Positions 3,861-64,000 of a stretch of 64,000 bases of DNA are shown here, piece by piece. Both the position numbers and the translations under genes were made by a program. The first letter of the stretch is position 1. The number at the start of each line of letters is the position of its first letter. The notes under the pieces are model-generated. The model had not been told where the DNA came from and searched no databases. It worked only from the letters and a program-made list of their open reading frames with translations. Origin of the DNA: Escallonia rubra (taxonomy: Eukaryota; Streptophyta; Magnoliopsida; Escalloniales; Escalloniaceae); NCBI GenBank assembly GCA_033065855.1, contig JAVXUO010002995.1, forward strand, positions 124,001-188,000, given 5' to 3'.

Positions 3861-3862
3861 CA

Positions 3863-21574: not shown

Positions 21575-22923
21575 TTTAGTTTTGATCTTGTGACACGCCG
21601 ATCTGAGCGCCGTCAACAATCATATCTTCCCTCACAAAATCCAGAAAATCTGGATCACCTCGATCTTGTCGTCTAATAAAGTTGTGGATAACGCAACAAG
21701 CAATTGGTATGTAACTTTGAGTTTTAATCGAAAAAATTGGCATCTTACTCAGAATTGGAAAACATTTCTTTATAACACCAAAGGACCTTTCAATGACATT
21801 TCGTAGTGACGAATGCCTGTAATTGTACAATTCTGTGATACCTGTTGGTGGCCCAGTTCGTTTAAACTCTTCTAAATGGTATTGTTCGCCTCTATAAGGT
21901 GCCAGGAACCCAGTCACGTTTGTATAACCAGAATCGACAACATAATAACGATATGAAATGTCGAGAAAAAGTTGTAAGTATGACTACTTGTGAATTGATA
22001 TAATATAGGATCAAACTCAGTTATAATGCATGGATGTGTGTACCTCCTATAGGCATTGGAAACTTATTAACGAGGTTAGTAATTGTCTCAAAAATCACTC
22101 TGGCATCATGTGCACTTCCTTCCGAACCAGCCATAACAAAAGTGAAGCACATGTCAAAAGAACACACGAACAAGAGATTATGCGTTGTGTGAATCATCTT
22201 TCCACGGTAAGCAATTTTCTCGCCAGCCGGTATGCATGCATCAATATGAGTACCGTCAATTGCTCCAATACATTTTTAACACATAAGCAAATTCATATCA
22301 TCTACAGATATCAAACCATTTGACAATTTGATATTCATAGGAGGAATGTTTACCTTAAAATAAGGCCAATACTTGGGGTTATTTTTAATTTCTAGTGCAA
22401 CTTCACTTTGATTTGGAGGAGAAATGATTTGCGGTGCAAGCCTACACACTTTCTTCAAAACATGATTGAAGTAATACGATATGGTCTCGCCTGAATGTTA
22501 GAGCCGCTCCGCAGCGTGACGATTGCTTGAGTTTTGTACGAGTATAAATAGGAAAATTACTAATTGTTCTAGGGCGGTCAGCTGTCTAGAATCTTCCAAA
22601 CTAGTTTCAGCCTTCAAAAGTTCACATAATGCTATAAGAACTGGCGGTCTCATCCTCAACATATCATAGCATCTACCTTCATGACCATTAATTAACTCTA
22701 GCACATAATCATGTCCTCTAAGTGCTGAATTTCTCATGGGCCTTTTGCTCGTATTCATGTCTTTATATTCCACAAATCCTATAGCGCCCAAAACCTCTGC
22801 CACATCAAACTCCTCTTTCTCAAACTCCTCTAACTCATCAAGCAATTGATAAGCATCATAAATCCTAACCAAATTTCGGTCCATCCTGTTTAACAACATA
22901 GGCAATATTAATGAATTGAACAT
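21575..22923 (-). pseudogene. PIF/Harbinger DDE_Tnp_4 transposase relic
   Basis: From the N terminus (minus strand) there is RNSALRGHDYVLELINGHEG with LRMRPPVLIALCELL, the helix-turn-helix region, ending NRHAAERL and an in-frame TAA. HSGETISYYFNHVLKKVC follows directly in the same frame. Next come KYWPYFK and a likely intron, then CIGAIDGTHIDACIPAG with the first catalytic Asp and MAGSEGSAHDARV with the second. YYVVDSGYTN, TGFLAPYRGEQYHLEEF and RHSSLRNVIERSFGVIKK with the catalytic Glu close the core. It ends IACCVIHNFIRRQ and then an acidic tail. All three DDE residues are present. The in-frame stop near 22510 and frame changes between blocks that may not all be introns make a functional product unlikely. 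Confidence 0.85.
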
Positions 22924-38200: not shown

Positions 38201-39411
38201 CAAATAGGTTATTGAAATTAGAAGTGATGATATTTTTTTAGATCTTCAGGGTCATCAGTCCAAACATTGTTACTATTTTTTAGGCCTTCAATTTTATTCC
38301 TTTTCCTTCTTTTGAGGGTAGTAACATGGTAGAATTTAGTGTTTAACTCACCAAGAGTTAGGGATTGAGATCTGGATTTCTGGAACCAGAAGATAGCTTC
38401 CTGATTAAGGATGGTATTATATTCTCTTTTAAGTTCTCTATCAAGTTGTTCAAGGTTGAAACTGAAATGATTAGATAAAGCCGATTGTATACCATTCAAT
38501 CTGGCCAGGATACGTCTTTTCTTTCTGAAGAGATTACCAAAATTATCTTTATTCCAGATAAAGGCAAGGTTCTGAAACTTTTGTTTGGCAGGGTTAAGCG
38601 CAGCATTATTGTCCCAAGCTTTCTCAACAATGGTTTTAAAATTTTCATGTTCGAGCCACATGGCTTCGAGGCGGAAAGGTCTATTACGAGTATTCAATTT
38701 AGCAATGCCATGTAAATGTAAGATTAAAGGAGAATGGTCCGAATACATACGTGGCAGGTTCGTGACGGTAGCCTCAGGAAACTTGATTCTCCAGTCGCTG
38801 TTCGCAACGGCACGGTCCAGACGTTCCTTGGTGTTGGCGAAGCCTTGGCGCCCATTATCCCAGGTCAGCTTCGGTCCTCTGCTTCCCAGGTCCATGAGCC
38901 CACAGTTGCTAAGGTTATTGTTGAAGGTTTGGCACCTTTGGAAATCGTTGAAAGGGGTGAAGCTTCGTCGTTCGGACTGACCAGAATAGTCGTTAAAATC
39001 GCCCGCAGCAACCCAAGGAGAAGAGAAAGAATCGACAAAATCATACAGGTTTTCCCACAGCTCAGCACGGGTAGCTTGGTGAGGGCTGCCATACACCGCC
39101 GAGAAGAACCAGTTGTCGGAGTTGTTTTTCTTTACCTCAATGTGAACTACTTGTCTGTGGGTTTGGATAGGGGTGACCGTAACTTCCTGAGGGTTCCAAA
39201 GGACCCAGATTCCTCCAGAACGGCCTTGAGGATCAATAATGCTGGAGCTAGATAAACCAAAGTTTTCGAAAAATCCATTCATCGTCTGGAATTCTACCTT
39301 AGTTTCCATCAAAGCGACGATATACGGTTTGAACTCCTGAAACAACTGTCTGAAGTTGTTCTTGAATCTTTTGTTTCCGGCGCCTCTAACATTCCAGATT
39401 AATGCTGTCAT
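35300..39411 (-). pseudogene. LINE-A ORF2: endonuclease, reverse transcriptase, RNase H
   Basis: Starts MTALIWNVRGAGNKRFKNNF at 39411. Endonuclease motifs are VALMETKVE, GGIWVLWN, VAAGDFNDYSG and MYSDHSPLIL. A frame change near 38220 separates the endonuclease from the reverse transcriptase. The reverse transcriptase block (38156-35790) is one open frame with ANKAPGPAGIP, FRPISLFNVNYKIITK, GGMVWKIDLEKAYDKLKWDF, GIRQGDPLSPYIFVL and the catalytic LFYADDLMLF. The zf-RVT finger follows (WTVLHDRLPTN, ICPRCSTFEETTLHVLWNC). After a stop near 35790 the RNase H continues as INTDGASKGNPG, IETDSTSALQL and MREGNQCADFLANLG. Catalytic residues are present in every domain, but breaks near 38220 and 35790 prevent a full product. 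Confidence 0.9.
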
Positions 39412-39451
39412 CGAGTGATTGTGCAAGATATCTTCTTCAACAAAGGGGAAT

Positions 39452-41317
39452 TTACCTTTCAGCAGAGATTTCATTTTCTCCATTCCAAGAGACGGATGCG
39501 TCAAGGCAGACATCTTTGTTTCTGAGGGGGCTTCTACTTCGATCCACTTTCCTTCTGTTAGTATCATTCTGAAACTCTCTATTAATGTCGCTATCGCGGT
39601 GAAAGCTATCATTTCTTCTTCGATCTGTTCTATCACCTCCAATCCCAGAAGATTGCGTTTTCGAAGCCCGAATTGTTTCCTCATGGCTGCGACGCAGAAG
39701 ATAAGGGTCAGGGGGTTTATTTTTTTGGACAGAAAGGGGGGTCGTAACAGTAGGTGTTATGGTTTCGGTTGAGATCGAGGAATTGGGGGAAAGGGGAAGA
39801 GAAATTATCTGGGCGGGATGCGGCGCTTCACGTGTAATGACTTCAGGCTTAGGGTTTTCTGTGTGAATGTCGTCGGCTTGGATTGATACAGGTGGCATGA
39901 TCATGTCTGTAGAAGAATTCGTACAAGTAGAAGTGTTTGGATCTTTAGGATCCGAAGACAGATTCACTTTCTTCTTAGGATTGAAGGCATAAGGCTGAAG
40001 GTTGGTCATGGGCTGGGGTTTAAGAGAGCCCTGACTTCTATCTGATGCTTGGTCCAGGACAGGGATAGCATTTTCGGGGTTGAGGGCTTCAAATCTGTTA
40101 TTGTTTTTCCTGGACCCCTGGTTTGGGCCTTCACTTATTTTCCTTTGCCCCATAGGGCTGTTTTCTGAGTGTTTTCATTGGGCATTAGGCCCAAACCTAT
40201 GTGCTTTTCGCTTGACTATCATCCATGTTCCATAGCTAGATTTGTGCAGGCTCTGAGCAGATCTGGTACCTGTCTCTGTCAAGACATGGGCGTTACTATT
40301 CAGGACGTTGGATTGTTGCAGGTTACCGTTGATATCTGTCAGCTTGCCTGGATCTCTATGGGAATTGGGCTCCGGTGTGCTCATCTTCTCCGGCCGGTTG
40401 GTGCAGTTTTCTTTCCGGTGTCCCACACGTCCACACTCAAAGCAGATTTGCGAGAGGAATTCATACTCTACTTTGTATTCCTTGCCGGCGAGCAAATAGG
40501 CTGGGATAAAAGGCTTTGACAGATCAATTTCAACGCAGATACGAGCGCATTTGCCTATGATGGATGAAGCTGTGTTGAAATCAACCTTTACAAGTCTACC
40601 AAAATTGGCAGCAATTCTTCGGAGCACTAGTTCACTGTAGTATTCTATAGGTAGTTCAGGTAACCGGAGCCATATCGCAGTAGCCGTTTCTAAGGCTTCC
40701 GAAGGTTTAAAATTGGGCTCCCATTTACGGACAGTCAGATAGTGATTTAGAATGATCCATGGGCCGCCATTTAGAACCTTAAGAGCATCTTGACTAAAAT
40801 CAAATTTGATGAGGAAGAACCCATCATCTAAGTCGATCATTTCAAAATCTCCTTGGATATCCCAGATAGTTTTGAGTCTTGTGGTCAGAGCTCTGTATCC
40901 AATGTTTTTACCCAGTAATTTGATTATAATGGATTCCTGCCACTGTGCCCTTATAGAGTTGCCACTGTGCCCTTATAGAGTGGATGAGGGTTGAAGGTAG
41001 GATGATTTCAGGAATGCAATCTCTATCCCGGTGGTGAGGGGGAATGGTGCTATCTGGAGCTTCGTCGAAAGAAGGGTCTTCCATTTCGTCAATAAAGTAA
41101 ACTGCTTTGTCTGTTTGGCTTTTGAAGACCGCGTCTCTGTATGATTTGTTCTGCGTAGTAAACGGAGGTTGGGGTGAAAGAAGGGGGTGGGGACCAGAGC
41201 TCCATTGTCTTGAAGAGGGGTTATTAATTCCATGGCAGAGTCGGTTGTGGGCCGTAGGGTGCATTCTGGTAGTAAGACAGAGTTGCTCTCTTTTGGTCCT
41301 AGTTCTATTTCTCCCAT
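39452..41317 (-). pseudogene. LINE-A ORF1: DUF4283 and CCHC zinc-knuckle protein
   Basis: RNA-binding ORF1 product of plant L1 LINEs. From the N terminus there is NKSYRDAVFKSQTDKAVYFI with EMEDPSFDEAPDS, then a frame break at a 22-bp tandem duplication (TGCCACTGTGCCCTTATAGAGT on the plus strand, twice, 40936-40979). The DUF4283 core follows: FEMIDLDDGFFLIKFDF, GGPWIILNHYLTVRKWEPNF, AIWLRLPELPIEYYSELVLR. The knuckle ICFECGRVGHRKENC (Cys-x2-Cys-x4-His-x4-Cys) follows near 40400. An in-frame TGA at 40175-40177 precedes a long low-complexity C-terminal part that ends at 39452. LINE-B ORF1 has the same layout uninterrupted, which makes the breaks clear. Confidence 0.85.
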
Positions 41318-47000: not shown

Positions 47001-47097
47001 CCGGGGAAGACAAAATAATTATTCTAAAAACCTTAATCCAAAAATCCTTAATCCTAATTTGAACATTTGAACATTTAAACTATTATATTGGATATTT

Positions 47098-47345
47098 TTC
47101 AAGAACACCCTAATTTACAAATTAGGGTTTCAAGAAAACCCTAATTTACAAATTAGGGTTTCAAGAAAACCCTAATTTTGGGTTTCAAGAAAACCCTAAT
47201 TTGTAAATTAGGGTTTCAAGAAAACCCTAATTTGCAAATTAGGCTTTCAAGAATATCCTAATTTGCAAATTAGGCTTTCAAGAATATCCTAATTTGCAAA
47301 TTAGGCTTTCAAGAATATCCTAATTTGCAAATTAGGGTTTCAATA
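47098..47345. repeat. 31-bp tandem array of palindromic units with telomere-like words
   Basis: About eight units of CAAGAAAACCCTAATTTGC then AAATTAGGGTTT, each an imperfect inverted repeat pairing CCCTAATTT with AAATTAGGG. One unit is shortened to 24 bp, and the last three carry ATATCCTAA in place of AACCCTAA. The CCCTAA/TTAGGG words echo the plant telomere repeat, but spacing and symmetry differ from telomeric DNA. Confidence 0.85.
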
Positions 47346-49000: not shown

Positions 49001-50285
49001 TTGGAAGTTGTAATAAAAACTTATCAAAAATATTTTTTCTTGAAAAGATTTATCTTGGGACGTTGGAAAGCACCCTAAATAATATATAACAACTCAGAAA
49101 AGCGTCCCAACATGGCCTAATGTGGTGCACCTTTTAGGACGTTGAATTGTGCTTTGTCAGGCTTTACTATTGCTGAGTCGCTTATGTGCGCTGTAATAAC
49201 TTATTGTGACGACCTCTACTAGGGTGACGTTAAGACACCATTCAAAGCGCTCTTATATGATACTTGTAAGGACGCTAGGTGTAAGGCGAGCTTACCATGG
49301 AAGTGTGGATAGAGAAAGGAGCATTAGAAATGGAGAAGTTTGAATATTTTGGTGGAGTAATTGGTATAATGGGGATGAAGAGGAGATTAGTGGGGTAGAG
49401 CGGTTATTTTGTTAAATGTTGAGAATTTTTCAACATTGACCTTAATTAACTATGTTTTATTTGATATTAGTACGTTATAACACGGTATAATTTGAAGTTA
49501 AAAAAGAATTTACCATAAGGGTTACCTTAACCTAGTGTCTCTGGCCTCAGACATTGTGAGGCATCCCCCTGCAACCTCTTGATATGATCAATTTCTCTGT
49601 GGCTTCCGAGTCAGAGCTATGGATCCCACGTTAGCCTTTTTCCCTTAAGATTGGCTTCTTTGACAAAGCAAGATTAGGAAATATATTGAGTTGTCGTTGT
49701 CTCTTGGTTGGGGGGGGGGGGGGCGTAAACGTAAGTCAGATAACTGTAGATATAAAAGTGCTGTTGAAATAAGTTGCTATATGGTGCCCTTCAATGTACT
49801 TGGACAAAGCCCGATAATGGACGGCATTAGTCTTCAGCCACTGACTCAAGCGATAATAATAATTAGATAACGGAGACTTTGGGAGTGAAAGTCTGGAAGA
49901 ATTATTTAGACATTAGGAGTCTTTCCTACAAACGAGTTGGACATTAAGCGTATTTAACACAAACGAGTTGGCCATTAAGTGTATTTAACTGGTACACATT
50001 TTTCATGTTTACAGGAAAACAAATTATTGTGAGGATAAAATGACAAAACAGGCAGATGATTAACAACAGGGATACCAGATATAGAATCATGAGCTGATCT
50101 TTTTGTCAAACTTCATGTACCACGAAATTAGTGGTAAACTCACCCCACGATGTGTGACTCTACACCACGTTGTTTAAATACAATTCTTCTATGTTTATAA
50201 AAGAAAATCAACTCGAGCAATAATAATATAATAACGGCGACTATGGGATTGAAAGTCCACAAGAAATATTTAGACATATCCTGGC
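49001..50285. other. Intergenic stretch right of the Helitron
   Basis: No gene. Contains a G run (about 49711-49723) and two diverged copies of a host repeat, 49848-49940 and 50214-50293 (AATAATAAT...AACGG(A/C)GACT(T/A)TGGGA, then TGAAAGTC and TTTAGACAT). The second copy is cut at 50293 by the 10.5 kb insertion. Confidence 0.6.
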
Positions 50286-50730
50286 ACTAGGAGTGTGTTT
50301 GGATGTGGAATTTTGAAATACTGAGTACTTTTAAATTCTCTTATTTTGAAATTCATTCATTTACAAATCCCATCATTACAAAACATTTTGTTTGGAATTT
50401 TTATTTTATGAATTCTTACTGGGTATTTCTTATGAGTATTAATGCATTCAAGACTTTCTTAAAAAGAAAAAGGATACAAATAAGCTGTTAAAAGAGTGGG
50501 GAGCAGATATCTTAAAAAGTACTGGAAAATATATATCCTAGAAATTAGGCATAAATTACGTAGGGACTGTACGTTTACCCAATTTCGTCTTCAATTTGTA
50601 ATGATGATAAAAAAGATGCATTTTTTCGTGTATTTTTATTTTTTTTAATTTCGTTTTGAATAAAAAATTCAAACAGTAGTGAAAAAAATGAAAACGTTTT
50701 CACCATTTTTCAGTGCTCGGATTCTCTGTC

Positions 50731-50744
50731 ATCAGAGAATACCA
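50731..50744. repeat. Target-site duplication, LINE-B, left copy
   Basis: ATCAGAGAATACCA, repeated at 56867-56880 directly after the poly-A tail. Confidence 0.9.
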
Positions 50745-50856
50745 GTAACGTGCTTTCAGTGTGGATCTCCCAACAATTCGACTGTTTCATAACTTTTTCT
50801 CTACTGTAGAAAGCCTTCTCTACTGTAGAAAGCTTCTTTAGGGAAGGAAAGTGAGA

Positions 50857-52680
50857 ATGGTTCCCGATCCAGGCGATGCTGACGATCCTGTTTATAGAGG
50901 TCAAGGTCCTATCCTTTCCCCTGGGAGAGATCTCCTTATGAAGGACTCAAGTCCTCCCTCGTCTCTAAAGCTGAACCAGGGAACAGAGTCCCCCTGTTTT
51001 CAAGTCTCGAAACCAAAGTCATACCGTGACATTGTATCTACATCTCGTGGAAGAGAGATTGATTTCGAAGGTTACATGGAGGATTCAACATCTGATGAAG
51101 ATGAAGAAGAACAAGGCAACCTGCAAGAAGGCAACCTGCCTCTAGGTGGGGAGTTCATCGATAACCCACTAAAACCGAACATATCTCTGTCGCCCAAGCT
51201 CATCCGGAAGATTAGGAAGAAATGGGAAGGTACTTTAATTGTCAAGCTGTTGGGTAAATTGATTGGATTTCGAGCTCTCTCGACTAGACTCCGATCCATA
51301 TGGAATCTTCAAGGGGATTTCGAGCTTATCGATCTGGATGGGGGTTTTTTCCTTGTGAAATTTGATTACATACAGGATTATCAATATGTAGCTAGTGGAG
51401 GACCTTGGATAATCCTGAACCACTACCTCACGGTCCGAAAGTGGGAACCCAATTTTAAGCCATCGGAAGCCTCTCCATCTAGAACGGCCATTTGGATTCG
51501 TCTCCCGGAGCTGCCTATTGAATACTACAATGAAAGGGTTTTGTTGAAGATAGCTAAGAGATTCGGTAAACCCCTGAAAATTGACCTAAACACGACGACT
51601 TCAATCCGGGGGAAGTATGCTCAGATCTGTGTTGAGATGGATTTGAATCAACCCCTCATTCCTGCGTTTGTAATATGTGGAAGGGAATTCAAGGTTGAAT
51701 ACGAATATCTGAATAACATCTGTTTTAGCTGTGGATGTGTGGGACACCGCCGGGAACTTTGCCCGGAGAAGAGAATGAAGATGCCAGAAAATCTGAACGG
51801 AATGGACCAAACAGACTCCCGTAGAAGTGACGTCACTAGCCACGTGAATGAGGAACGGGTGACAACCGACTATTTCCAACGGATACTTGAACCAACGGCT
51901 CCAAATGAGTTTGGACCGTGGATGCTTGCCAAAAGGAGGCCTCGCAGACCTCCAGTGTTAAGGCCCAACAATGGGGCCCAGAAATCTAACCGTTTTCAAG
52001 CCTTTCAAAACACGGGGGAGAAAAAAAACAACCAAAGTGTGAATCTAGAACTCGTGCTCTCCCCGAAGCCCGCAATTGAGAAATCCCTAAGCCCTGATCC
52101 AGTTCAGGCTAGCCCCCGTTGCATGGCCCAAGTTAACTTGGCCCAAGAAGATATAAGCCTTGAAGCCCAATTGACTCATTCTAGCTTCCCCATCAGGGGA
52201 ACATCCAGGCCGTCCGATGAAAGTATGTATCCTATGGTGGAGGAACCTCCTCTGATTTCTAAGGAGATAAGCCTATCCCTTCAGAATCACCCAACCGATC
52301 AAACTTCTTGTTCCACGCCTATTCCCCATCTCCTCGAGATTACCCCGTACGTTCACCGCCTTGGCCAGATCCCCTGCACTAGTCAACCGGTGTTAATGGA
52401 GACTGTTGAGGTTCATCCAAACAGATCTTTAGGTAGAGAACCCCCCAAACCCCCCTCCCTATTACACCAACCAGAGAGTACCCGTCATCAATCCCCTTCT
52501 CTGCGTCACCGATCTTTCTCTCCGGAGGCCAGGAGAGGTAGATCGGATATATCTTCTGTTTCTGATCTTCATGAAGAGGACACTAGAGAAGTGTTGAAGG
52601 TCAAGGGATCCAGAACCCTTCGTCATGAAAGAATAACCATGAAAGATGGCCCGATTCAACAAATGGATCCCCAGGATTAA
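50857..52680 (+). CDS. LINE-B ORF1: DUF4283 and CCHC zinc-knuckle protein (607 aa)
   Basis: RNA-binding partner of the LINE ribonucleoprotein. The ATG at 50857 (MVPDPGDADDP) is chosen as the first ATG of the open frame. Residue numbers below count from it. An acidic region (TSDEDEEEQ) near 80 is followed by DUF4283 at about 123-265 (LIGFRALSTRLRSIWNLQGD, GGPWIILNHYLTVRKWEPNF, IRLPELPIEYYNERVL). The knuckle CFSCGCVGHRRELC follows at 289-302. The remaining half is Ser/Pro/Arg-rich and probably disordered. There are no stops or frame changes, so this ORF should be translatable. It lies 39 nt upstream of ORF2 on the same strand, an arrangement that in L1 elements implies reinitiation or a bicistronic RNA. 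Confidence 0.92.
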   Translation: MVPDPGDADDPVYRGQGPILSPGRDLLMKDSSPPSSLKLNQGTESPCFQVSKPKSYRDIVSTSRGREIDFEGYMEDSTSDEDEEEQGNLQEGNLPLGGEFIDNPLKPNISLSPKLIRKIRKKWEGTLIVKLLGKLIGFRALSTRLRSIWNLQGDFELIDLDGGFFLVKFDYIQDYQYVASGGPWIILNHYLTVRKWEPNFKPSEASPSRTAIWIRLPELPIEYYNERVLLKIAKRFGKPLKIDLNTTTSIRGKYAQICVEMDLNQPLIPAFVICGREFKVEYEYLNNICFSCGCVGHRRELCPEKRMKMPENLNGMDQTDSRRSDVTSHVNEERVTTDYFQRILEPTAPNEFGPWMLAKRRPRRPPVLRPNNGAQKSNRFQAFQNTGEKKNNQSVNLELVLSPKPAIEKSLSPDPVQASPRCMAQVNLAQEDISLEAQLTHSSFPIRGTSRPSDESMYPMVEEPPLISKEISLSLQNHPTDQTSCSTPIPHLLEITPYVHRLGQIPCTSQPVLMETVEVHPNRSLGREPPKPPSLLHQPESTRHQSPSLRHRSFSPEARRGRSDISSVSDLHEEDTREVLKVKGSRTLRHERITMKDGPIQQMDPQD

Positions 52681-52719
52681 TTTTCTCATGGTTGCTTTCC
52701 CCTTTTCCCATTTAGTTTT

Positions 52720-55700
52720 ATGGATTTTATGTTTTGGAATTGTAATGGTGCCGGTAACAATAAGTTCAGAAGGGATTTTCGGGAGATGGTGAGAAGATTT
52801 AAACCTTCGGTGGTGGCGATCTTCGAACCGATTGTTAAGATGGAGCAGATGGGAGATTTCTTCTCCAACTTGGATTTCTCGGATCATTTGGCCATGGATC
52901 CCGAAGGACGATCTGGGGGCATTTGGCTGCTGTGGAACTCCAGATGCATAACTATTTCGATCATCCAGGCTCTTCCTCAAGTCGTCCATGCCCTGGTTTC
53001 TAACCCTAGTTCTGATAACTAGATCCTGTCTACGATTTATGCCAGCCCGAACTGGGCTAAGCGCAAAGAACTCTGGGAAGACCTTAAAGTCTTTGCGGCC
53101 AGTATCTCCATCCCGTGGCTGCTGGGTGGGGACTTTAATGATATAGCGGATTTGAGCGAAAGGAAGGGTAGCCGCGACTTACTGGACTGCAGCAGAATTA
53201 AAAGGTTCAACGATAACATTAACCAATGTAACTTGGTGGACCTGGGTTGCTGTGGACCAAGACTGACATGGACGGATGGCAGAAAGGGAATGGCGAACAC
53301 CCAAAAAAGGCTGGACCGGGCTATGGCCAACCCTGAATGGTGCATCAAATTCCCAAATAATCAGGTGTACAACTTTCCTAGAATTTCTTCTGATCACTGT
53401 CCTATATTTTTGAGCTGTTCTGGTAGTTTCGTTCATTCGAAGAGAATCAAACCTTTTAGATTCGAGGTTGCCTGGGCGACCCATGAAGGTCTTCTTCCCA
53501 TTGTGGAAGAGGCCTGGAGGCCTAATAATAATAATATTCAGAACCTGAGTCAGAATATAATTTTGTTTAGAAACAAAGTCCAGGTGTGGAATAAGAATAC
53601 CTTTGGGAACATATTCCATCGAAAAAATAGATTGTGGTCCAGACTTGTTGGCATCCAAAAAGCCTTATCTGTTAATTCTTCCCACAACCTTCATCTGCTT
53701 GAGAAGGAGCTTAGAAACGAGTACAATAGTACTCTGCTCCAGGAACAACTTTTGTGGTTCCAAAAGTCTAGAGTTAAGTCCTTGGAATTAGGTGATAGAA
53801 ATACTAGATTTTTTCACATGTCGACTGTGATTAGAAGGAAAAGAAACAAGATCGAAACTCTTAAAAATGAGCTTGGGAATTGGATTACTAATCAGCAAGA
53901 CCTCGCGAATCACATAAGCAAATACTTTCAGGAGCTGTTTAACCTTNAAACCTTTGATCCCCAGGATATTAATGATATTTATATTGATGTTAGGGGTCCC
54001 AAGATTGATGATCTTGAGTCCAGGATGTTATGGTCCCCTCTTGTTGACTGTGAAATTCATAGGGCCTTTCTTAATATTAGTCCCTACAAAGCCCCGGGCC
54101 CTGATGGTCTTAATGGCTTTTTCTTTCATAAGTATTGGGAGATCGTTGGGTCTTCTTGCTGCAAATTCATTAAGGATTGCTACAATAGTGGGATCATGCC
54201 TAGTGACAATAATCTTGCTTATGTGACCTTGATTCCTAAAGTTGATATTCCCCAAGATATTGCCCAGTTTAGGCCCATAAGTCTCCTTAATGTTACTTAT
54301 AAAGTCCTGTCTAAACTTTTGGTGACTAGATTGAGGCCTATCCTTCATAAAATTATTGGGCCTGCTCAGTGTAGTTTCATACCTGGTAGATCTACCATTG
54401 ATAACACCATCATTACTCAAGAGATTATTCACACCCTTAAACATGCTAAAGGGAAGAAAGGTGGGATGATTTTTAAAATTGATCTTGAGAAAGCTTATGA
54501 TAGAATGAGTTGGAATTTCATTGATCAAACTCTGAGATATTTCAACTTCCCCCTGAACTGGATTAATATCATTATGAGCTGCATTACTAGTGCCTCCATG
54601 TCTGTCCTTTGGAATGGTATTCCTTTACCCCCTTTTAAGCTTGGTAGGGGTTTAAGACAAGGAGATCCTTTGTCTCCTTATATTTTTGCCTTATGTATTG
54701 AGAGACTATCTCACATGATCCACCACATTAATAAGGACAAAAAGTGTCTTGGGTTGAGAGCTTCCAAAAATGGGCCTTTTATCTCTCATTTATTTTATGC
54801 TGATGATCTCATGTTATTTTGCTCGGAGAGTAATTATAATTGTGATACTTTCATGCATATTTTGAATGATTTTTGTTGCATGTCTGGGCAAAAGGTGAAC
54901 CTCCAGAAGTCCAAACTTTACTTATCCCCTAATGTCCCTAGTATTAGAGCTAAGGAACTTAGCCTCAGATGTGGTATCCCCCTCACTTCTAACATTGGGA
55001 CTTACCTGGGAATACATATGGTGCATAAGAGAGTTTCTAGAGGCCTTTATGATAGCATAATTAAAAAAATGCAGAGCAAACTTGCTGGTTGGAAAACTAA
55101 ATTCCTTTCTTTGGCTAGAAGATCTGTTTTAATACAATCTGTTACTTCTAATATGGCTAACCATGTGATACAAACCCAAATGCTGCCTAAGAAAATTACT
55201 GATGAGATGGATAGGTTAAATAGGAATTTCCTGTGGGGGGATACTGCTGCTGTCAAGAAAATTCACTTGGTTAATTGGAATAGTGTCTGTCAGCCTAAAA
55301 GAAATGGAGGGATTAACATTAGGAAAGCTCACCTAAACAACTTAGCCCTGACTTCTATGATCAGTTGGAAGCTTATTACCAATGAGGATCACCTGTGGGT
55401 TAAGGTTCTCAAGGCCAAATATTCTGAGAATGGTAATCACAGAAGTTGGCCAAAGAAAAGTGGGGGATCTCACATCTGGAGAAGTATTAGAGCCACCATG
55501 CCTGTTTTGAATGTGGGGGTTAAATGGAATGTTCATGATGGCAAGTCCATATCTTTTTGGCAGGACTGGTGGACTGGAAATGGGCCCATTAACCCTAACC
55601 CTGACCTTGAAACTACCTTGACTGTTGATAAGTTTATTTCTCTAGACAGGAGCTGGAAGGTTCAGGACCTATCTAGGTATATCTCTAGCAATATGATTCA

Positions 55701-56835
55701 GGCCATTACTAGGATCCATCTGCCTTTGCACCAACCTGAAGTGGACTTTCCTTTCTGGGGGGTTGTGGGTAATGGTAAGTTTTCAACCTCTAGTGCCTAT
55801 AGAATAACCTCTTCTCTGGATGTGAACAATGCCACATATCCTGAGTTTGATTGGATATGGAGGCTAAAGATCCCCCCGAAATTCAAAACTTTTCTGTGGA
55901 CCATCAACCATGGAAGGCTGCCTACTAATGAGCTGAGAGCTATTAGAAATTTCTGTCCTAATGCCATCTGTAGTAGATGCAAAATTGAAGCTGAAACTAT
56001 AGACCATACTCTTAGATCTTGTTCTAAAGCTAAAAGCTTATGGACAAATTTTTTTGACTCTAGTGTGTTTGAGCAGGAGCTTGGAACTAACATAATTGAT
56101 TGGATTAAAAGGAACCTGAAGGACTGTGATAATCAGTTGTTCATGAATCTAAATTGGAATTCTGTTTTTCTAGCTTGTATGTGGCAAATTTGGAAGGAAC
56201 GCAACAAAGAAAGCATTGAAGGGATCACCTTGCCTGTGTGGCAGTCTTGGAAAAGAGTGATGGAACTGGCTACTGATCTGGATTCGGCTAACAGTAAGCT
56301 CCCCCCCCTCCACTGTAAAACTCCTATGCTTATCAAATGGTTATTGCCAACTGCAGGTACCCTTAAATTCAACACTGATGGCTGTGCTAAAGGAAATCAA
56401 AGAGGTGGATATGGAGGCTTGATCCGTGATGACATTGGGCAATGGAAAGGTGGTTTCTTTGGAAGCATGTCCACGGAGGATAACCTGGAAGCTGAAATAC
56501 ATGGGATTTTCAAAGCTTTACAAATAATCAAAGAACAACAGCTCCGTGAAGTCACGGTTGAAACAGATTCCCTCATGGCGCAACAATTGATGACTACACC
56601 CGAGATCGAATCTTTTCATCCTTTATCTACTATTATTAGTGATTGTCGCTTTTTGCTCATAGCGACTAAGACTAGAATTAAACATGTTTTTAGAGAGGGC
56701 AACCACTGTGCTGATAAGCTAGCCAATCTAGGAACTAGATATGAGGGGGATTTTGTTTATCTCAACCAACCCCCGGTTGAACTTAGTTCTCTGCTTCTGG
56801 CTGATGTAATTGGGGTGGAATACCCTCGCAATTAG
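52720..56835 (+). pseudogene. LINE-B ORF2: endonuclease, reverse transcriptase, RNase H; one stop codon
   Basis: Starts MDFMFWNCNGAGNNKFRRDF (52720). Codon 101 is TAG (53020-53022), where the context SDN*ILSTIYASP suggests an original tryptophan. The rest is one open frame of more than 1,200 residues. Endonuclease motifs are VVAIFEPIVKM, GGIWLLWN, LLGGDFNDIADLSE and SSDHCPIFLS. Reverse transcriptase motifs are YKAPGPDGLNGFFF, FRPISLLNVTYKVLSKL, GLRQGDPLSPYIFALC and LFYADDLMLF. The zf-RVT finger is WTINHGRLPTN with ICSRCKIEAETIDHTLRSC. Plant-type RNase H follows with FNTDGCAKGN, NLEAEIHGIF, VETDSLMAQQL and FREGNHCADKLANLG, so the catalytic acids are kept. The undetermined base at 53947 makes a codon NAA, which is sense unless N is T. 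This is the only near-complete retroelement protein in the window. Confidence 0.92.
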
Positions 56836-56866
56836 GTTGTCTTTTGTTCCTTTTAATAAAAAAAAA

Positions 56867-56880
56867 ATCAGAGAATACCA
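56867..56880. repeat. Target-site duplication, LINE-B, right copy
   Basis: ATCAGAGAATACCA, same as 50731-50744; its first A is shared with the tail. Confidence 0.9.
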
Positions 56881-57059
56881 AATCCTTTCCACTATTCACA
56901 ATTTTTTGGCCGAGCCCTCTGACCCTAGCTGCAATGTCAAGTGGGAGACAGTCCCTAGCTCTCCCCTCTCTCTCTCCCTCTCACATTTATCTCCTCTACT
57001 TTCCATGAATAACAGCTCCTGAATTCATTCTCACGCCCTTCCCATATCTACCGAAATCA

Positions 57060-57213
57060 ATGGAAAAGCTGCACCGAGACGGATTGCCTTTGGCTGCCGA
57101 AGACCCAGTCTAGATACTATGGACACGACGCCGGTACCCGCCATCTCCCAAACAAGCACCCACCATTCCGTGACCAGAGAGAACGAAGTCCCATCTCCTG
57201 CACAACTCTTCAA
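57060..57213 (+). CDS. Possible first exon of an unrecognised gene
   Basis: Preceded by a CT-rich leader-like stretch (56960-57000). One frame is open from before 57050 and reads APRRIAFGCRRPSLDTMDTT then ENEVPSPAQLFK, ending at a donor-like CTTCAAG|GTTTTG. The sequence that follows (TTTCGTCGATCGATCCGCTA, T-rich) looks like a first intron. I do not recognise the product, and no second exon is found before the ALDH2B and PPR fragments. It may be another captured piece. A competing ATG at 57059 gives only a 17-residue frame. Confidence 0.3.
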
Positions 57214-57837
57214 GGTTTTGACCATCTCTCTCTCTTTTACTTTTTCGTCGATCGATCCGCTACTCTCCTTTTAATTTCTGTTTTCTCTTCGTTGATTTCG
57301 ATGTTTGGTTCGGCTGTTGATGATTATCGAGATTTCTCTGTGATTTGTCAAAAAGTAGTCTAAATTGTTCTGTTTTGAGTAATTTAATTTGATGTGGGTT
57401 GTCTATGATCTATGAACTCTAGGGATTTTGGTTTATGACAAGGGTTGTCTCAGATTGGTGCCGAACAGCTTGTGAGTCTGCAGATTATATTGGGTTAGTT
57501 GGTCAGAACTTAGAAGTTTTGGACTGCTTGGCTTTTAGTAGCTTTTTGTTAGGCATTTGGAAGAATTTGCAGCTTTGGTTTTGTTCTAAAGTTCTTTGAT
57601 GAGATTCAGTTGATGGCTTGATAATGTGTGACATTCCATCTCGAGGTGTGACTTTAGTTCCAGGGCTTCTAACGTGTCTAATTTAGTTTTTAGTAGCTTG
57701 TTTTATGGAAGTATGGTTGTTTTAGATGGTGTGATTGAGGATGCTGTGGTTGAAAGTATGGATCATTGACAGAGTTTTATGGAAGTATGGTTGTTTTATG
57801 GAAGTATGGATCATTGACAGAGTTTCCTTCATGCCTA
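57214..57837 (+). other. Intron-like spacer with a short tandem duplication
   Basis: T-rich, no coding motifs. TATGGAAGTATGGTTGTTTT and GAAAGTATGGATCATTGACA variants recur two or three times between 57704 and 57830. Confidence 0.5.
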
Positions 57838-57966
57838 TAGCAGCGTGTTGTACACAACCAAATTGGGTTCAACCCCAACAGCCTTCATCTCCTGCAACAC
57901 ATACCTAATACCATCATAATCACCAGCCTCACCAAACATCTTCCCCAGCACAGAAAAAGCACAACT
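57838..57966 (-). pseudogene. PPR protein fragment joined to ALDH2B exon 2
   Basis: The minus-strand frame reads SCAFSVLGKMFGEAGDYDGI, RYVLQEMKAVGVEPNLVVYN and TLL, then a stop. YVLQEMKAVGVEPNLVVYNTLL is a typical pentatricopeptide-repeat half (xxMxxxGxxPNxxxYNxLL). It starts directly where the ALDH2B homology ends at about 57970, with a frame change at the junction. The piece is 43 residues, so it is a captured scrap, not a gene. Confidence 0.7.
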
Positions 57967-57970
57967 AGTC

Positions 57971-58083
57971 TTTTCCAATAAGAAGCTTGGTGTAGTTGAC
58001 TTGAACAGGTGGAATAATTAGTTCCTCAATTGCTGCAGCAGTGCTAAACCTGTGGATGCCCCTACCCAAGCTAGAATTTCTTC
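57971..58083 (-). pseudogene. ALDH2B: ALDH2B exon 2, 5' part, inverted relative to exon 1
   Basis: Follows an acceptor-like AATTTTCAG on the minus strand and translates as RNSSLGRGIHRFSTAAAIEE and then LIIPPVQVNYTKLLIGK. Plant mitochondrial aldehyde dehydrogenase 2B proteins read (G)RNS..GRGI.RFSTAAA.EEPI.PPVQVNYT.LLI.G at this point. The first two nucleotides of the exon complete a Gly codon with the single trailing G of exon 1 found at 58522, as in the intact gene. It stops mid-exon and is joined to a PPR fragment. Confidence 0.8.
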
Positions 58084-58440
58084 CTGAAAATTAGTATTTC
58101 ATAAATAAATAACCTTGTCTTCTTCGCACTCCTTTTTTCTGCTTATATTAGTCCCTTATCGAATGGACCTTCTTTTTCTTGCTTTTCCAATTTGAAATAA
58201 GCATGACTCTGTGATAGAATTGGTGACCCATCATCGGTCATCCTCTCACATGTTCAACATAATCACAAATAATCATCTAGATATCGTTTACAGAATTTAC
58301 TGAGTCTATCTACTCATGACTCAAGAGAGAGTAGCAGCCGGTGCAGTCTTTTTTACTGGAATTGAAGCCATAAACTCACTCTGTATATGTACCCGTGAGT
58401 ATATGTGAGAAGAAGGGGAAATTTTGGAACTTATACGGCC
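58084..58440 (+). other. Spacer upstream of ALDH2B exon 1, probable captured promoter or leader
   Basis: No coding motif. Directly upstream of the exon 1 ATG it would hold the ALDH2B 5' leader if the capture included it; no convincing TATA box was found. Confidence 0.35.
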
Positions 58441-58522
58441 ATGGCAGTCCGCAGGATATCTTCCTTGCTATCTCGTTCCCTCTATCTCCCTTCTGCTTCT
58501 GCTTCTCCCTTCCTTTCTCAAG
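58441..58522 (+). CDS. ALDH2B: ALDH2B exon 1: mitochondrial presequence
   Basis: Reads MAVRRISSLLSRSLYLPS then ASASPFLSQ, closely matching the N terminus of plant mitochondrial ALDH2B (MAARR+SSLLSRS...). It is Arg/Ser-rich with no acidic residues, as expected of a mitochondrial targeting peptide. The exon ends in phase 1 at CTCAAG|GTGACT, a good donor. The following 390 bp resembles the natural intron 1. The next plausible acceptor in the same phase is at 58913, before the RNase H1-N domain. Exon 2 of the same gene lies 360 bp upstream on the other strand, so the original order was rearranged. Confidence 0.75.
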
Positions 58523-58913
58523 GTGACTACTCACCACCCCTTTTCATTTCCCCCGCCCAATTGCTTAAATATGTTTACGTGTCTGTGTTGGGATATTTAG
58601 TCTTAATTGCTCTTCATATTTACTAATGATGGTGGTCTTTTTTTTGGTTCTGTTTGTTCTTTTATGCATATGACTCTGTTTAAGGTTCTCTGGTTCTTAT
58701 ATAGTACTTGTCTCGTTTGCACATATGCATAGGCTGGATTTATATCAGATTTGATTGACAATTGAGGAATTAATCACCAGTTTTTCAATAAATGTCTTTT
58801 TGTAACACAACTAGTCAAGACTTGCTAGCAAATGGCCTTGTTTTTTCAGTTTAAATGCTAACACTAAAAGCTTTGAGAAATCTGATGCTGTAAATGTCCT
58901 TTTTTTATGTTAG

Positions 58914-59243
58914 GGATAATAATGTCTCGTTGGTATGTTGTATTTGTCGGTCGAAGGCCCGGCATCTACGAGACATGGGAAGAATGTGAGCTGCACGTGT
59001 CTGGATTTCCTAACGGTGTTGTTAAAAAATATTGTAAACGTAGTGATGTCAGTGTTGCATATGTTCTTTACAAATCTCAGTGGGAAAGACGTATTGAACC
59101 TCCCGAACAACCTCCTCCTCCTCCGGCAGCACCACCCATGGCCAACCTAGCAATTGCTTCTCAAAGTTTTGGCAGACAAAGCGGAATGCAATTCCACGAC
59201 GAGTCTCCACCACCCTTTCCCCCTATGCCCTTCCCCTTGAATT
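58914..59243 (+). CDS. RNase H1 N-terminal (viroplasmin-like) hybrid-binding domain exon
   Basis: Preceded by the acceptor-like TTTTTTTATGTTAG. Reads GIIMSRWYVVFVGRRPGIYE, TWEECELHVSGFPNGVVKKY and CKRSDVSVAYVLYK. WYVVFxGRxPGIYxTWEECxxxVxGFP is the signature of PF01693, the domain that binds RNA-DNA hybrids in RNase H1 and occurs alone in many plant proteins. After the domain comes a Pro-rich tail (PPEQPPPPPAAPPM). A donor-like TAT|GTACAATG follows near 59241; read through, the frame ends at 59398. The local ATG at 58922 could start the protein, or ALDH2B exon 1 could splice in because the phase fits. Confidence 0.7.
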
Positions 59244-59399
59244 TTATATGTACAATGACAATGCCGGTTAAACTTGGATTTTTTTCTTACTCTTTAATAA
59301 TTTATGTCTTCATTTTTTATTCATGGCCTTGTGTGTCACGCTTCTGTGGTAAATTAATTAATTATATGCACGTTGTAATATGCTTATCAACGCGGTGAT

Positions 59400-60044
59400 A
59401 AACTTATTAAAAGTTTTTTTCCAAAATTTTTCCATCTCTTACTTGTATATGTATAAGAACAAGAGGTAAACTCGAATGTTTTCTATTTTTGAAAATGTTT
59501 GTTAAATAATGAGTCTTTTTTTTTCCTTACTTTATTTATTTTCGTTAAAGTGAACCATATGTAAAATAACCTTCGTAATGCTTGGTGGTGAGGGATTGTT
59601 GAACTGTGATTTTTTTTTTTACTTATTACTAAAGGGAATTTAATTGAAGGAGGCCGTAAATAGTAACTCCTGACGCTCTCAGCAAACTATAAAGACCCTT
59701 GTCATGATAATATATTTTATCCAAGAAATTGAAAAAGACAGGGACCTCTTCAGAAAAAAAAAAAAAAAAAGTTGATCATGTATTAGAGAAAGTCAAAAAT
59801 ATCTTTTTGCGTAAGTATGTTTATAAATAACGATATATCCTTTTAAAAAGTTACTTCTCTGCGTTTCATTTTAATGTGAATAATTTTGCTAAATTCTTTA
59901 CCCACGCAAACGATAATTTTGTTCAATCTTTTAATCTCGTTTTCACTTATCCGCTTCTTTTACATTTAATTTAATTAGTGGAAGATTGATTCAAGGATGC
60001 ATTTTTTCACGGATGGTAGGTTAAGAATAAAAAATAAAAGAAAA

Positions 60045-60080
<36 letters not shown>

Positions 60081-60751
60081 CCACACGAACAGGGAAGGGG
60101 AATGGGAAATCATGAAGGGGAAGGGGAAGGGGAAGGGGATGTCACACACCTATATGTGGCCCAGACAAGAAAGGAAGGGGGAGGGGAACATTGGCGTGAA
60201 GCAAGTATTGGGGTGGCCCTATGTGGAGGGTTTTGTCACAAATTGAGTGATGACTTTACTGGGAGACGTGAAGCATGAATTGGGTGGGCCCTACGTGAAG
60301 GGTTTTTGTCACAAAGTGAGTGATGACTTTACCGTGAGAAATGAAAAAGTAGGTACGAAGGATAATTGAGAAGATAGTCCGAAAGTATAAAAATAATTTG
60401 TTAAGTTAAAAATAAGATTAAAATGAGAAAATATGTGCATAAATAGTGTAAAAACAGAAGAGAATGAATTTTAAAAAGTTGGTGAAAATAAAAATAAAAA
60501 TAGTAAACGTACAGAAAAAAGTAAATACGGAAAAGATTAAAAGTATACAATATGATTTTAGAACTGAATGCTAAAATCTGAAAAATAAAAACAGAATACA
60601 AAACACGAAAACAAATTACGTAAACATACGCCCCCGTAGTGATTTTACAAATTATTTTTTTTTGAAAAGATTTGATAAAACTATTTGACTGTAAATTTAG
60701 AGGCCCCAAATATTCGTTCAAATTCTTTCAAAAAATTTGCAAATTCTCTTT
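59400..60751. other. AT-rich right part of the 10.5 kb insertion
   Basis: No gene. Contains a GA microsatellite (60047-60077), a GGGGAAGG run (60115-60140) and two copies of an 84-bp repeat (about 60198-60350: GTGAAGCA, ATTGGGGTGG, TTTTGTCACAAA, GAGTGATGACTTTAC). Confidence 0.55.
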
Positions 60752-61203
60752 CGTATAATTTAATCAAAAAAAATTCTAAAAACATTTTCAAAGTAAAAAT
60801 TCTCGATTCAAATTTCTAACTCCAAACACACGCTAGGAGTCTTTCCTAGGAACGACAAGAAAATTAATACAAAAAACTGTAAGAAACAAGTAGGAGAGTA
60901 ACATGTTCTCTTACACAATCGTTCACGTGACTTTGTACAGCGCACTACTCTCAAGCAAAATCATTGACGTGACTTTGTACACGTATAATTTAATCAAAAA
61001 AAATTCTAAAAACATTTTCAAAGTAAAAATTCTCAATTCAAATTTTTAACTCCAAACACACGCTAGTAGTCTTTCTTAGGAACGACAAGAAAATTAATAC
61101 AAAAAACTGTAAGAAACAAGTAGCAGAGTAACATGTTCTCTTACACAATCGTTCACGTGACTTTCTACAACGCATTACTCTCAAGCAAAATCATTGACGT
61201 GGC
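60752..61203 (+). repeat. 230-bp tandem duplication forming the TNL leader
   Basis: CGTATAATTTAATCAAAAAA begins copies at 60752 and 60982. Each runs through AACTCCAAACACACGCTAG, GAGTAACATGTTCTCTTACA and TCAAGCAAAATCATTGACGT. The copies differ at about a dozen positions (roughly 5%). Each copy contains the terminal part of the 10.5 kb element, so the duplication happened after that insertion. Confidence 0.9.
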
Positions 61204-64000
61204 TGCCTCTTCGTCTTCAACCCCGCCGCGCTGGATGTACGACGTGTTTCTGAGCTTCAGAGGCGAAGACGTCCGCAAGAACTTTGTGGACCATCTGCAT
61301 GTCGCTTTGGGTAGACATAACATCCGCACCTTCAAGGACGATGAGGATCTCGAGAGTGGAAGCTCAATCTCGCCGGAACTCGTCAAAGCCATTGAAGGGT
61401 CGCGGTTCGCCATCGTCATTTTCTCCCAGAACTATGCTTCGTCGTCGTGGTGCCTGGATGAACTCGTGAAGATCATTGAATGCAAGAACCTGGGGGGACT
61501 GACGACGGTCCTTCCGGTCTTCTACCATGTGGATCCATCGGATGTGCGTAAACAAACGGGGAGTTTCGCTAAAGCCCTTGAGCACCATGACAGGATCAAG
61601 GTATCTAATTGGAGGCAAGCATTAACTGAAGCCGCCAACACATCAGGGTGGGATGTCGAGAAAGAGGAAAATGGGTAAGCACCAATTCAAATGCCAATCT
61701 CTCTGCATCAAAATATTGATATGGCATCTAACCGAATTATGCCTAGAAAACTAGCAAATGTTTATGCAAACTTACATCCTTTCCACTTGCAGGCATGAAG
61801 CCAAAGTTGTCAGCAAACTTGTTGCGGAGGTCTTCCGCGAGTTGGATCATCCAGTTTCAAACGTTGAGGAGGATCTAGTTGGAATAGATTCTCGTGTTGA
61901 CGAGGTTAAATCGTTGCTGGAGTTAGGGACTGATACCGTTCGCTTTATTGGGATATGGGGCATGGGCGGAATTGGTAAGACAACGGTTGCATGGGAAGTG
62001 TTTAAAAACATCTGTTCTCAGTTTGAATGTGCCATTTTTGTTCATGACGTTAGAGAAAAGTCAAAGAAATATGGTTTGGAGAGTCTGCAAGAAATAATGA
62101 TTTTAGAAATCCGAAGACAAAGGGATGTGAAGGTACGTAGTATTTTGCATGGAGTTCAACTGATATGGAGATATGTGAGCAATAAAAGAGCTCTTGTCAT
62201 TCTCGACGACGTGGATCATATGGCCCAAGTAAATGCATTTGCTGGAGGTCGGAATTGGTTTGGTAAGGGGAGTAGAATTATCATAACAACAAGAGATAAA
62301 AAGATATTGGTTGATACCAATGTAGCTAAGATACACCCGGCTGGTTTGTTAGGACCGACTGACTCTGTCAAGCTCTTTAATAAGAATGCCTTCAAGAATA
62401 TCCATCATCCAGAAGAGTTCAAGGAGCTCTGTGATCTCATAGTAAAATATGCTGGAGGCCTTCCTTTAGCTCTTAAAGTGTTGGGTGCATTTTTACATGG
62501 TAGAGACATTGAAATGTGGGAAAGTACAGTGGCTAGGCTAAGAGATATTCCAGAAGATGATATTATAAAAAAACTTAGAGTGAGCTTTGATTATGGGCTG
62601 AAGCCAATAGAGCAAGAAATATTCCTCGATATTGCATGCTTTCTCAAGGGGATGAAGGTAGATTATGCCAAACAAGTACTTGACAGTTTTGGTTTCCACA
62701 GTAAGATTGGAATCCCAGTTCTAGTTGACAAATCTCTCATAGTTATTTCAGAAGGTGAGCTCCAGATGCACGACTTGATGCAAGAAATGGGACGGCATAT
62801 TGTTCGCCAATTCCACCCAAGACACCCTGAAAAACGTAACAGATTGTGGGATCCTCAAGAAGTTGTTGAATTATTGACACAAAATACGGTGAGAATCAAA
62901 GTTTTGCTAGAATGTGTTTTTGTATTTAGATGAAATATAATTTTTCTAAGTTGTACAAAAAGCACTATTACAATAAGTTATTTTTTTCTCTTTTTTTGGG
63001 TTGAACATTAAAATAAGTCATAACCTTATGTTTTGCTCTTGCGGTTGGTTATTAGGGGACAGAGGCAGCTGAAGGCTTACAACTGGACTTACCAGAGCCA
63101 ACGGAAGTAGACTGCAGTAGTGACGCCTTAAAGAAGATGGACAGGCTAAGGCTACTCATATTTCGTAATGTCTACTTTTCTCAAGGCGTTGAATATCTTC
63201 CAAATCAGTTACGTTGGCTTTCCTGGCATGGATACCCTTCAAAATCGCTACCAACAACTTTTAAAGCGGCAAACCTTGTTGGGCTTGACTTGCCTTGGAG
63301 TCAACTTGAACAATTTTGGACTGAAGGAAAGGTACAGTGTCTTTTTATGTTTCTTTTCAAGTTTTTTTTAAACCTGAGATCTATCTAACAAAAGGAACGG
63401 GTCAGATATATAACCTGGCTTATGTTTTTTATGCAAGTTTTCATAATTTTAAATGCATATTAATGATACAATATACATATCAGTTTTATTATTTCTGCAT
63501 TGTTTGAACAGAGAGGAAACAAGCTGAAATTCATCGATCTTACACACTCGCAAAAGCTAATTGGGACCCCAGACTTCAGCGAAATCCCGAACCTTCAGAT
63601 ATTGGTTCTTCAAGAGTGCATAAGTTTGAAACAGGTCCACGAATCTATAGCATTTCACAAGAATCTTGTTCTCTTGGACATGGGAGGTTGCAAAAAGCTG
63701 AGAAGTCTTCCGGACAAAATTCAACTGGTATCTCTTGAGAAACTTAATCTTTCTAACTGTATAAGACTTGATAAGTTTCCAGACATTCAAGGAGATATGA
63801 ATAGCTTATCTGAGCTTTATTTGGATGAAACTGGTATAGAAGAGCTTCCATCATCGATTGAACGCCTCAAAAACCTCGGTACACTTGATTTATCCAGGTG
63901 CAGATGCCTTAGAAGTCTGCCGAGTAGCATATTCAGTCTGCGGTCTCTAAGGTCTCTTGATCTCTCTGGCTGTGAATTGCTTCTAAAGTTTCCAGACATT
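61133..64000 (+). CDS. TIR-NB-ARC-LRR (TNL) disease resistance gene, 3' end outside the window
   Basis: Intracellular immune receptor; its TIR domain acts as an NADase or signalling module on effector recognition. Exons by splice signals and phase are 61133-61674, 61793-62888, 63056-63331 and 63512 onward, the usual TNL pattern (TIR, NB-ARC, linker, LRR). TIR at residues 36-170 has [16 protein letters not shown] and a putative catalytic Glu region ([14 protein letters not shown]). NB-ARC motifs are the P-loop GMGGIGKTT (237-245), kinase-2 LVILDD (315-320), [15 protein letters not shown] (340-349), GLPLAL (403-408) and MHD (506-508). LRRs begin in exon 4 ([36 protein letters not shown]). No break was found in the visible part. 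The common TNL start [10 protein letters not shown] reads [10 protein letters not shown] here; an ATG 66 nt upstream adds 22 residues. A start at Met35 (MYDVFLSF) is an alternative. Confidence 0.93.

What the first reader, a model, noticed from the sequence alone, without database searches (positions are those of the whole stretch)
50294..60831. A 10.5 kb insertion with short inverted ends that carries pieces of several host genes and split a host repeat next to a resistance gene
The ends share TGTGTTTGGA in inverted orientation, and the flanks CACTAGGAG/CGCTAGGAG look like an 8-9 bp target duplication. A nearby uninterrupted repeat (49848-49940) reads straight through the junction (AGGAGTCTTTCCTA). 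Inside are an unrecognised exon, a PPR scrap, ALDH2B exon 2 (minus), ALDH2B exon 1 (plus) and an RNase H1-N domain. Capture of multiple gene pieces is known for Pack-MULEs, Helitrons and some hAT/CACTA elements. Here the class is unclear, because the inverted ends are short and no transposase is visible. If it is one element, it is an exon-shuffling vehicle immediately upstream of a TNL gene.
Basis: partly seen in the sequence, partly recalled or inferred. Interest (0 to 1): 0.75.

Follow-up and report, generated by a model that had tools for sequence, protein, structure and literature searches.

The report
Gene-scrap transposon with retrotransposon inside
A 4.4 kb plant DNA transposon carrying scraps of several genes probably landed just upstream of a disease-resistance gene and was later split by a 6.1 kb LINE retrotransposon, so what looked like one puzzling 10.5 kb insertion is best read as two mobile elements of known kinds, one nested in the other.

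Summary
The ends are real: TGTGTTTGGA at 50294-50303 recurs inverted at 60821-60830 (20/25 over 25 bp), with 9-bp flanks CACTAGGAG/CGCTAGGAG matching at 8/9. None of 60 shuffles gave so good a pair. A sister repeat at 49844-49947 reads across the site, apart from a 10-bp indel, and no other candidate end in the ranges tested fits as a partner.

Without it a 4.4 kb element remains, with no transposase found. It holds an unidentified exon-like stretch, a PPR scrap (-), ALDH2B-like exon 2 (-) and exon 1 (+), and an RNase H1-N exon (+). A 230-bp tandem duplication (96%) later copied its right end into the 5' region of the TNL gene.

Best class: Pack-type element, probably Mutator-like by its 9-bp duplication, though its TIRs are short for that class. 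No plant genome was available to look for other copies. New member of a known kind.

The parts
50285..50293 (.). left target site duplication CACTAGGAG
   Evidence: 8 of 9 with the right copy
50294..50303 (+). left terminal inverted repeat TGTGTTTGGA (20/25 over 25 bp)
50294..60830 (.). Pack-type DNA element, 10537 bp with the LINE, 4.4 kb without it
50731..50744 (.). LINE target site duplication, left copy ATCAGAGAATACCA
   Evidence: 14 of 14
50745..56866 (+). nested full-length L1-type LINE, 6122 bp, with A-tail
50857..52680 (+). LINE ORF1 (607 aa): DUF4283 and weak zinc knuckle, uninterrupted
52720..56835 (+). LINE ORF2: endonuclease, RT, zf-RVT, RNase H; one in-frame stop at 53020, one N at 53947
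56867..56880 (.). LINE target site duplication, right copy
   Evidence: 14 of 14; its first A is shared with the A-tail
56881..57215 (+). unidentified exon-like stretch, GC-richer (51%), followed by GT
   Evidence: no Pfam or PDB hit
57838..57999 (-). PPR scrap; the first residues of this frame overlap the ALDH2B-like piece
   Evidence: PPR_3 E 1.3e-7 on residues 22-54; PDB designer PPR proteins
57973..58083 (-). ALDH2B-like exon 2 (part), preceded by acceptor TTTTCAG
   Evidence: (recalled reference)
58441..58522 (+). ALDH2B-like exon 1, followed by donor GTGACT
   Evidence: (recalled reference)
58914..59240 (+). exon-like stretch with RNase H1 N-terminal domain, preceded by acceptor TTAG; right limit approximate
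60821..60830 (-). right terminal inverted repeat
60831..60839 (.). right target site duplication CGCTAGGAG
60752..61204 (.). 230-bp tandem duplication (214 of 223 identical) carrying the element's last 79 bp and host flank; second right end at 61051-61060
49844..49947 (+). uninterrupted sister copy of the target repeat
61133..64000 (+). TNL resistance gene (TIR, NB-ARC, LRR) running off the window

Best explanation
The interval is a nested pair of mobile elements. First, a non-autonomous cut-and-paste DNA transposon of about 4.4 kb, with 10-bp perfect ends TGTGTTTGGA and no transposase found, inserted into a repeat upstream of a TNL gene and duplicated 9 bp. Its interior is a patchwork of short gene pieces in both orientations: an unidentified exon-like stretch, a PPR piece, an ALDH2B-like exon 2 and exon 1 head to head, and an RNase H1-N exon. 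I infer that they were picked up by break repair with template switching, as proposed for Pack-type elements, and that a transposase encoded elsewhere acted on the ends. The 9-bp duplication makes a Mutator-like element the most likely class. Later a full-length L1 LINE inserted into it (14-bp duplication and A-tail, as in target-primed reverse transcription) and more than doubled its length. Separately, a 230-bp tandem duplication copied the right end into the TNL 5' region. Shown: the ends, both target duplications, the nesting, the PPR and RNase H1-N domains, the tandem duplication. Inferred: the superfamily, the capture mechanism, mobilisation in trans. The ALDH2B name rests on a recalled reference.
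For: Ends and flanks with a shuffle control, 0 of 60 as good. Sister repeat reading across. No rival partner for either end in the ranges tested. LINE: DUF4283 E 2.9e-30, RVT_1 E 1.9e-37, zf-RVT, RVT_3, human L1 ORF2 structures at about 1e-50, 14 of 14 duplication; that duplication also shows that the left 0.45 kb and the right 4 kb were contiguous before the LINE came. Gene pieces; ALDH2B. MULE duplications of 8-11 bp and uptake of gene fragments: PMC6446971 (passages); up to 2 mismatches accepted for MULE duplications of 9 bp or more: PMC3903597 (passages).
Against: The TIRs are short for a MULE (commonly hundreds of bp, PMC6446971). The 9-bp duplication has one mismatch. The sister repeat lacks 10 bases found left of the junction. 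No second copy, autonomous relative or empty allele could be sought. Donor genes are in no collection searched, so capture by the element is inferred. PDB and Pfam do not confirm ALDH.
Confidence: 0.72

Rival explanations
1. The same nested structure, but the DNA element is of the hAT superfamily (Pack-hAT) with an 8-bp duplication.
For: Short TIRs suit hAT better than MULE (recalled); an 8-bp reading ACTAGGAG/GCTAGGAG matches at 7 of 8 (read). hAT elements found by packFinder in rice and maize have 8-bp duplications (PMC8903248, passages).
Against: The 8-bp reading makes the element ends unequal by one base; the 9-bp reading is symmetrical and matches at 8 of 9. The ends do not start like hAT ends (consensus recalled).
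Confidence: 0.15
2. A small DNA element inserted first and the gene scraps were filled in later at this very site by repair of breaks inside it, so the element never carried them anywhere.
For: For animals, most single-copy Pack-TIR elements are attributed to transposition-independent gap-filling (PMC8277862, passages). Nothing here shows that the loaded element has another copy.
Against: Not excluded by anything tested. Multi-copy Pack elements that move their cargo are known in plants (PMC13317346, passages).
Confidence: 0.25
3. The two ends belong to two independent short elements, and the region between them is ordinary genome with scattered pseudogene pieces.
For: The ends are only 10 bp perfect, and the pair was picked out of a long sequence by a reader looking for such things. 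Four other pairs in the window pass the weaker flank test.
Against: 0 of 60 shuffles as good; sister repeat reads across; no alternative partner among 96 and 54 sites with flanks above 5 of 9, apart from the duplicated right end.
Confidence: 0.08

Closest known systems
Pack-MULE (Mutator-like element with gene fragments)
   Same: Target duplication of 9 bp, no transposase found, pieces of several genes between the ends, position beside a gene.
   Different: Inverted ends only 10 bp perfect (20 of 25), where MULE TIRs are commonly hundreds of bp; no family copies could be examined.
Pack-hAT and Pack-CACTA elements (PMC8903248; CACTA element Tgm-Express of soybean, PMC1947982, listing only)
   Same: Short inverted ends (recalled) and captured gene fragments.
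   Different: Duplication of 9 bp instead of 8 (hAT) or 5 nt as reported for CACTA in PMC8903248 (3 bp recalled); ends are not CACTA.
Plant L1-type LINE
   Same: DUF4283 and zinc-knuckle ORF1, endonuclease-RT-zf-RVT-RNase H ORF2, A-tail, 14-bp target duplication.
   Different: Nothing notable; one in-frame stop and one unresolved base in ORF2.

Membership tests
Pack-MULE | target site duplication of 8-11 bp (up to 2 mismatches accepted at 9 bp or more) | tested here: met
   9 bp, 8 of 9; rule from PMC3903597 passages
Pack-MULE | long terminal inverted repeats (typical form) | tested here: not met
   10 bp perfect; best local alignment of the ends spans about 40 bp with gaps. PMC6446971 (passages) lists plant MULE groups with TIRs from 14 bp up and groups with none, so this lowers the claim without excluding it
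Pack-MULE | gene fragments between the ends | tested here: met
   PPR, RNase H1-N; ALDH2B by recalled reference only. Host origin of the RNase H1-N exon not proven
Pack-MULE | related coding Mutator element with the same ends | not testable with these tools
   no genome held for the window
hAT | 8-bp target site duplication | tested here: inconclusive
   7 of 8 with ends unequal by one base; the 9-bp reading fits better
CACTA | ends starting CACTA | tested here: not met
   ends TGTGTTTGGA; a CACTA occurs only in the left flank
Helitron | no inverted ends and no target duplication (recalled) | tested here: not met
   both present
L1 LINE (nested element) | ORF1, ORF2 with endonuclease and RT, A-tail, target duplication | tested here: met

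The most novel reading that the evidence does not exclude
A family of short-ended (TGTGTTTGGA, 9-bp duplication) Mutator-like elements that builds mosaics from very small pieces of several genes, here four or five pieces in about 2.4 kb including exon 1 and exon 2 of one gene head to head, and whose right end, duplicated into the 5' region of a TNL gene, now acts in that gene's control.
Probability: 0.15. Interest if true: 0.45.

Novelty: new member of a known kind. Interest (0 to 1): 0.3.

Why it matters
Transposons that carry gene fragments are an established source of chimeric genes in plants. This locus shows how such an element and a later LINE, stacked, can be misread as one large exon-shuffling vehicle, and it places one next to a TNL gene whose 5' region has since been rearranged. 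If the ends define a short-ended Mutator family, annotation that expects long inverted ends would miss it.

Tried and rejected
Considered and rejected: a single 10.5 kb element (the LINE has its own 14-bp duplication); two independent small elements; Helitron and CACTA (ends and duplication do not fit).

Led nowhere: the window's own genome (none held); an exact 25-base end pattern in the prokaryote collection genome contigs (0 matches, uninformative for a plant); PDB (0 hits) and Pfam (no aldehyde dehydrogenase; two sub-threshold unrelated families) for the ALDH-like peptide; Pfam and PDB for the stretch around 57023-57271 and Pfam for 57013-57360; Rfam at gathering threshold over the window (0 matches). 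Full-text search for TGTGTTTGGA with 'transposon': 3 papers, by title and abstract start unrelated (listing). Search for GTGTTTGGA with TIR/TSD terms: none of the 15 listed, of 433, holds the motif (listing). Searches were seen as listings only. Papers of which I saw passages: PMC8903248, PMC6446971, PMC13317346, PMC8277862, PMC3903597. All other papers: listing only or recalled.

Limits of what was scanned: 8 distinct reading frames inside the element went to Pfam, not every frame listed; outside the element, 22 of the window's frames were scanned.
Full report
Ends and target site. The inverted ends are TGTGTTTGGA at 50294-50303 and its complement at 60821-60830; over 25 bp they match at 20 positions. 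The 9-bp flanks are CACTAGGAG and CGCTAGGAG, 8 of 9. A scan of the whole window for 10-bp perfect inverted ends with an 8- or 9-bp flank repeat (at most one mismatch, up to 15 kb apart) found 5 pairs. The finding is the only one with 20 of 25; the other four have 13 to 16. In 60 block-wise dinucleotide shuffles the mean was 1.17 pairs (sd 1.11); none reached 20 of 25 and one reached 19. The real total of 5 is above the shuffle mean, so the flank rule alone is weak evidence; the length of the end match is what stands out.

Independent support for an insertion. The sister repeat 49844-49947 holds, side by side, the two host segments that flank the insertion (49/59 and 27/34 identities). The fit is not perfect: the split copy has ten extra bases, ATCCTGGCAC, just before TAGGAG. 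I take them as an indel between the repeat copies, because the duplication and the inverted end follow directly to the right; this is inference.

Two independent elements? Of 96 plus-strand sites within 3 mismatches of the end at 45.0-60.8 kb, only 50294 has a flank matching that of the right end at more than 5 of 9 (8 of 9). Of 54 minus-strand sites at 50.3-64.0 kb, only 60821 (8 of 9) and its duplicate at 61051 (7 of 9) do so for the left end. Within these ranges the ends belong together. The other test, copies and empty alleles elsewhere, could not be run, because no genome is held for this window.

The missed LINE. The stretch 50745-56866 is a full-length L1-type LINE of 6122 bp. ORF1 (50857-52680, 607 aa) has DUF4283 (E 2.9e-30) and a zinc knuckle below Pfam's cut-off. 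ORF2 (52720-56835) has endonuclease, reverse transcriptase (E 1.9e-37), zf-RVT and RNase H domains. The larger ORF2 piece matches human L1 ORF2 structures at about 1e-50. ORF2 has one in-frame stop at 53020 and one unresolved base at 53947. The LINE ends in a run of A and is bordered by ATCAGAGAATACCA on both sides, 14 of 14. It therefore inserted into sequence already in place, and the 0.45 kb left of it was contiguous with the 4 kb right of it. A second, more decayed LINE lies at about 35.8-41 kb on the minus strand, about 66% identical where the two align.

What is left is an element of 4.4 kb: AT-rich ends (28% and 31% GC) around a more GC-rich interior with pieces of up to 51%. From left to right the interior holds: an exon-like stretch that I could not name; a PPR piece on the minus strand (PPR_3 E 1.3e-7); abutting it, an ALDH2B-like exon 2, also minus; an ALDH2B-like exon 1 on plus; and an exon-like stretch with an RNase H1 N-terminal domain on plus (E 3.3e-12; PDB 1qhk E 4.2e-5). 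Exon 1 ends CTCAAG before GTGACT, and exon 2 begins GAAGAA after TTTTCAG; joined they read SQ-GRN in phase. The joined peptide has 36 of 66 identities to Arabidopsis ALDH2B4. No transposase domain was found in the 8 reading frames inside the element that were scanned; not every frame was scanned. Whether the RNase H1-N exon comes from a host gene is not settled.

After the insertion. A 230-bp tandem duplication (214 of 223 identical) copied the last 79 bp of the element together with about 145 bp of flank. A second right end therefore lies at 61051-61060, about 70 bp before the first ATG (61133) of the reading frame that carries the TIR domain. The TNL has TIR, NB-ARC and LRR domains. Any effect on its expression is untested.

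Class and mechanism. A 9-bp duplication fits Mutator-like elements (8-11 bp, PMC6446971 passages; mismatch rule in PMC3903597 passages). The short ends do not fit the usual long-ended form, though plant groups with ends from 14 bp up, and groups without any, are tabulated there. A hAT reading with 8 bp is possible but fits less well. CACTA and Helitron do not fit. Gap-filling and template switching are the published models for Pack-TIR elements in animals (PMC8277862 passages), and Pack-TYPE elements are described as widespread in plants (PMC8903248 title and passages). Small pieces from different sources, with two exons of one gene head to head, are what repeated template switching would give. 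The same paper attributes most single-copy animal cases to filling-in after insertion, so I keep open that the scraps were gathered at this site and never travelled. These steps are inferred: donor genes and sister copies could not be searched.

Verdict. The insertion is real on present evidence and its ends belong together, but the '10.5 kb exon-shuffling vehicle' is a 4.4 kb Pack-type element plus a 6.1 kb LINE. It is a new member of a known kind, of moderate to low interest.

Noticed in passing
35793-40972 (-): A second L1-type LINE (DUF4283, endonuclease, RT, zf-RVT in several frames), about 66% identical to the nested one where they align.
   Followed up: partly
29887-32602 (+): Decayed copia-type LTR retrotransposon coding region: gag, pre-integrase and integrase, SH3-like, RVT_2 in separate frames.
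   Followed up: partly
21579-21983 (-): Fragment of a DDE_Tnp_4 transposase, Harbinger-type by recall.
   Followed up: no
3328-4439 and 6467-6877: GC-rich tandem arrays (units of 67 and 65/131 bp) and, nearby, a DUF4216 domain, which I recall from CACTA-type elements.
   Followed up: no
61133-61237: Where a TNL start ATG before GCTGCCTCT would be expected (recalled analogy) there is GTG at the very end of the duplicated unit; in-frame ATGs lie at 61133, inside the unit, and at 61235, just before YDVFLSF.
   Followed up: no
47097-47343: Tandem array of a 31-bp unit with AAACCCTAATT motifs.
   Followed up: no
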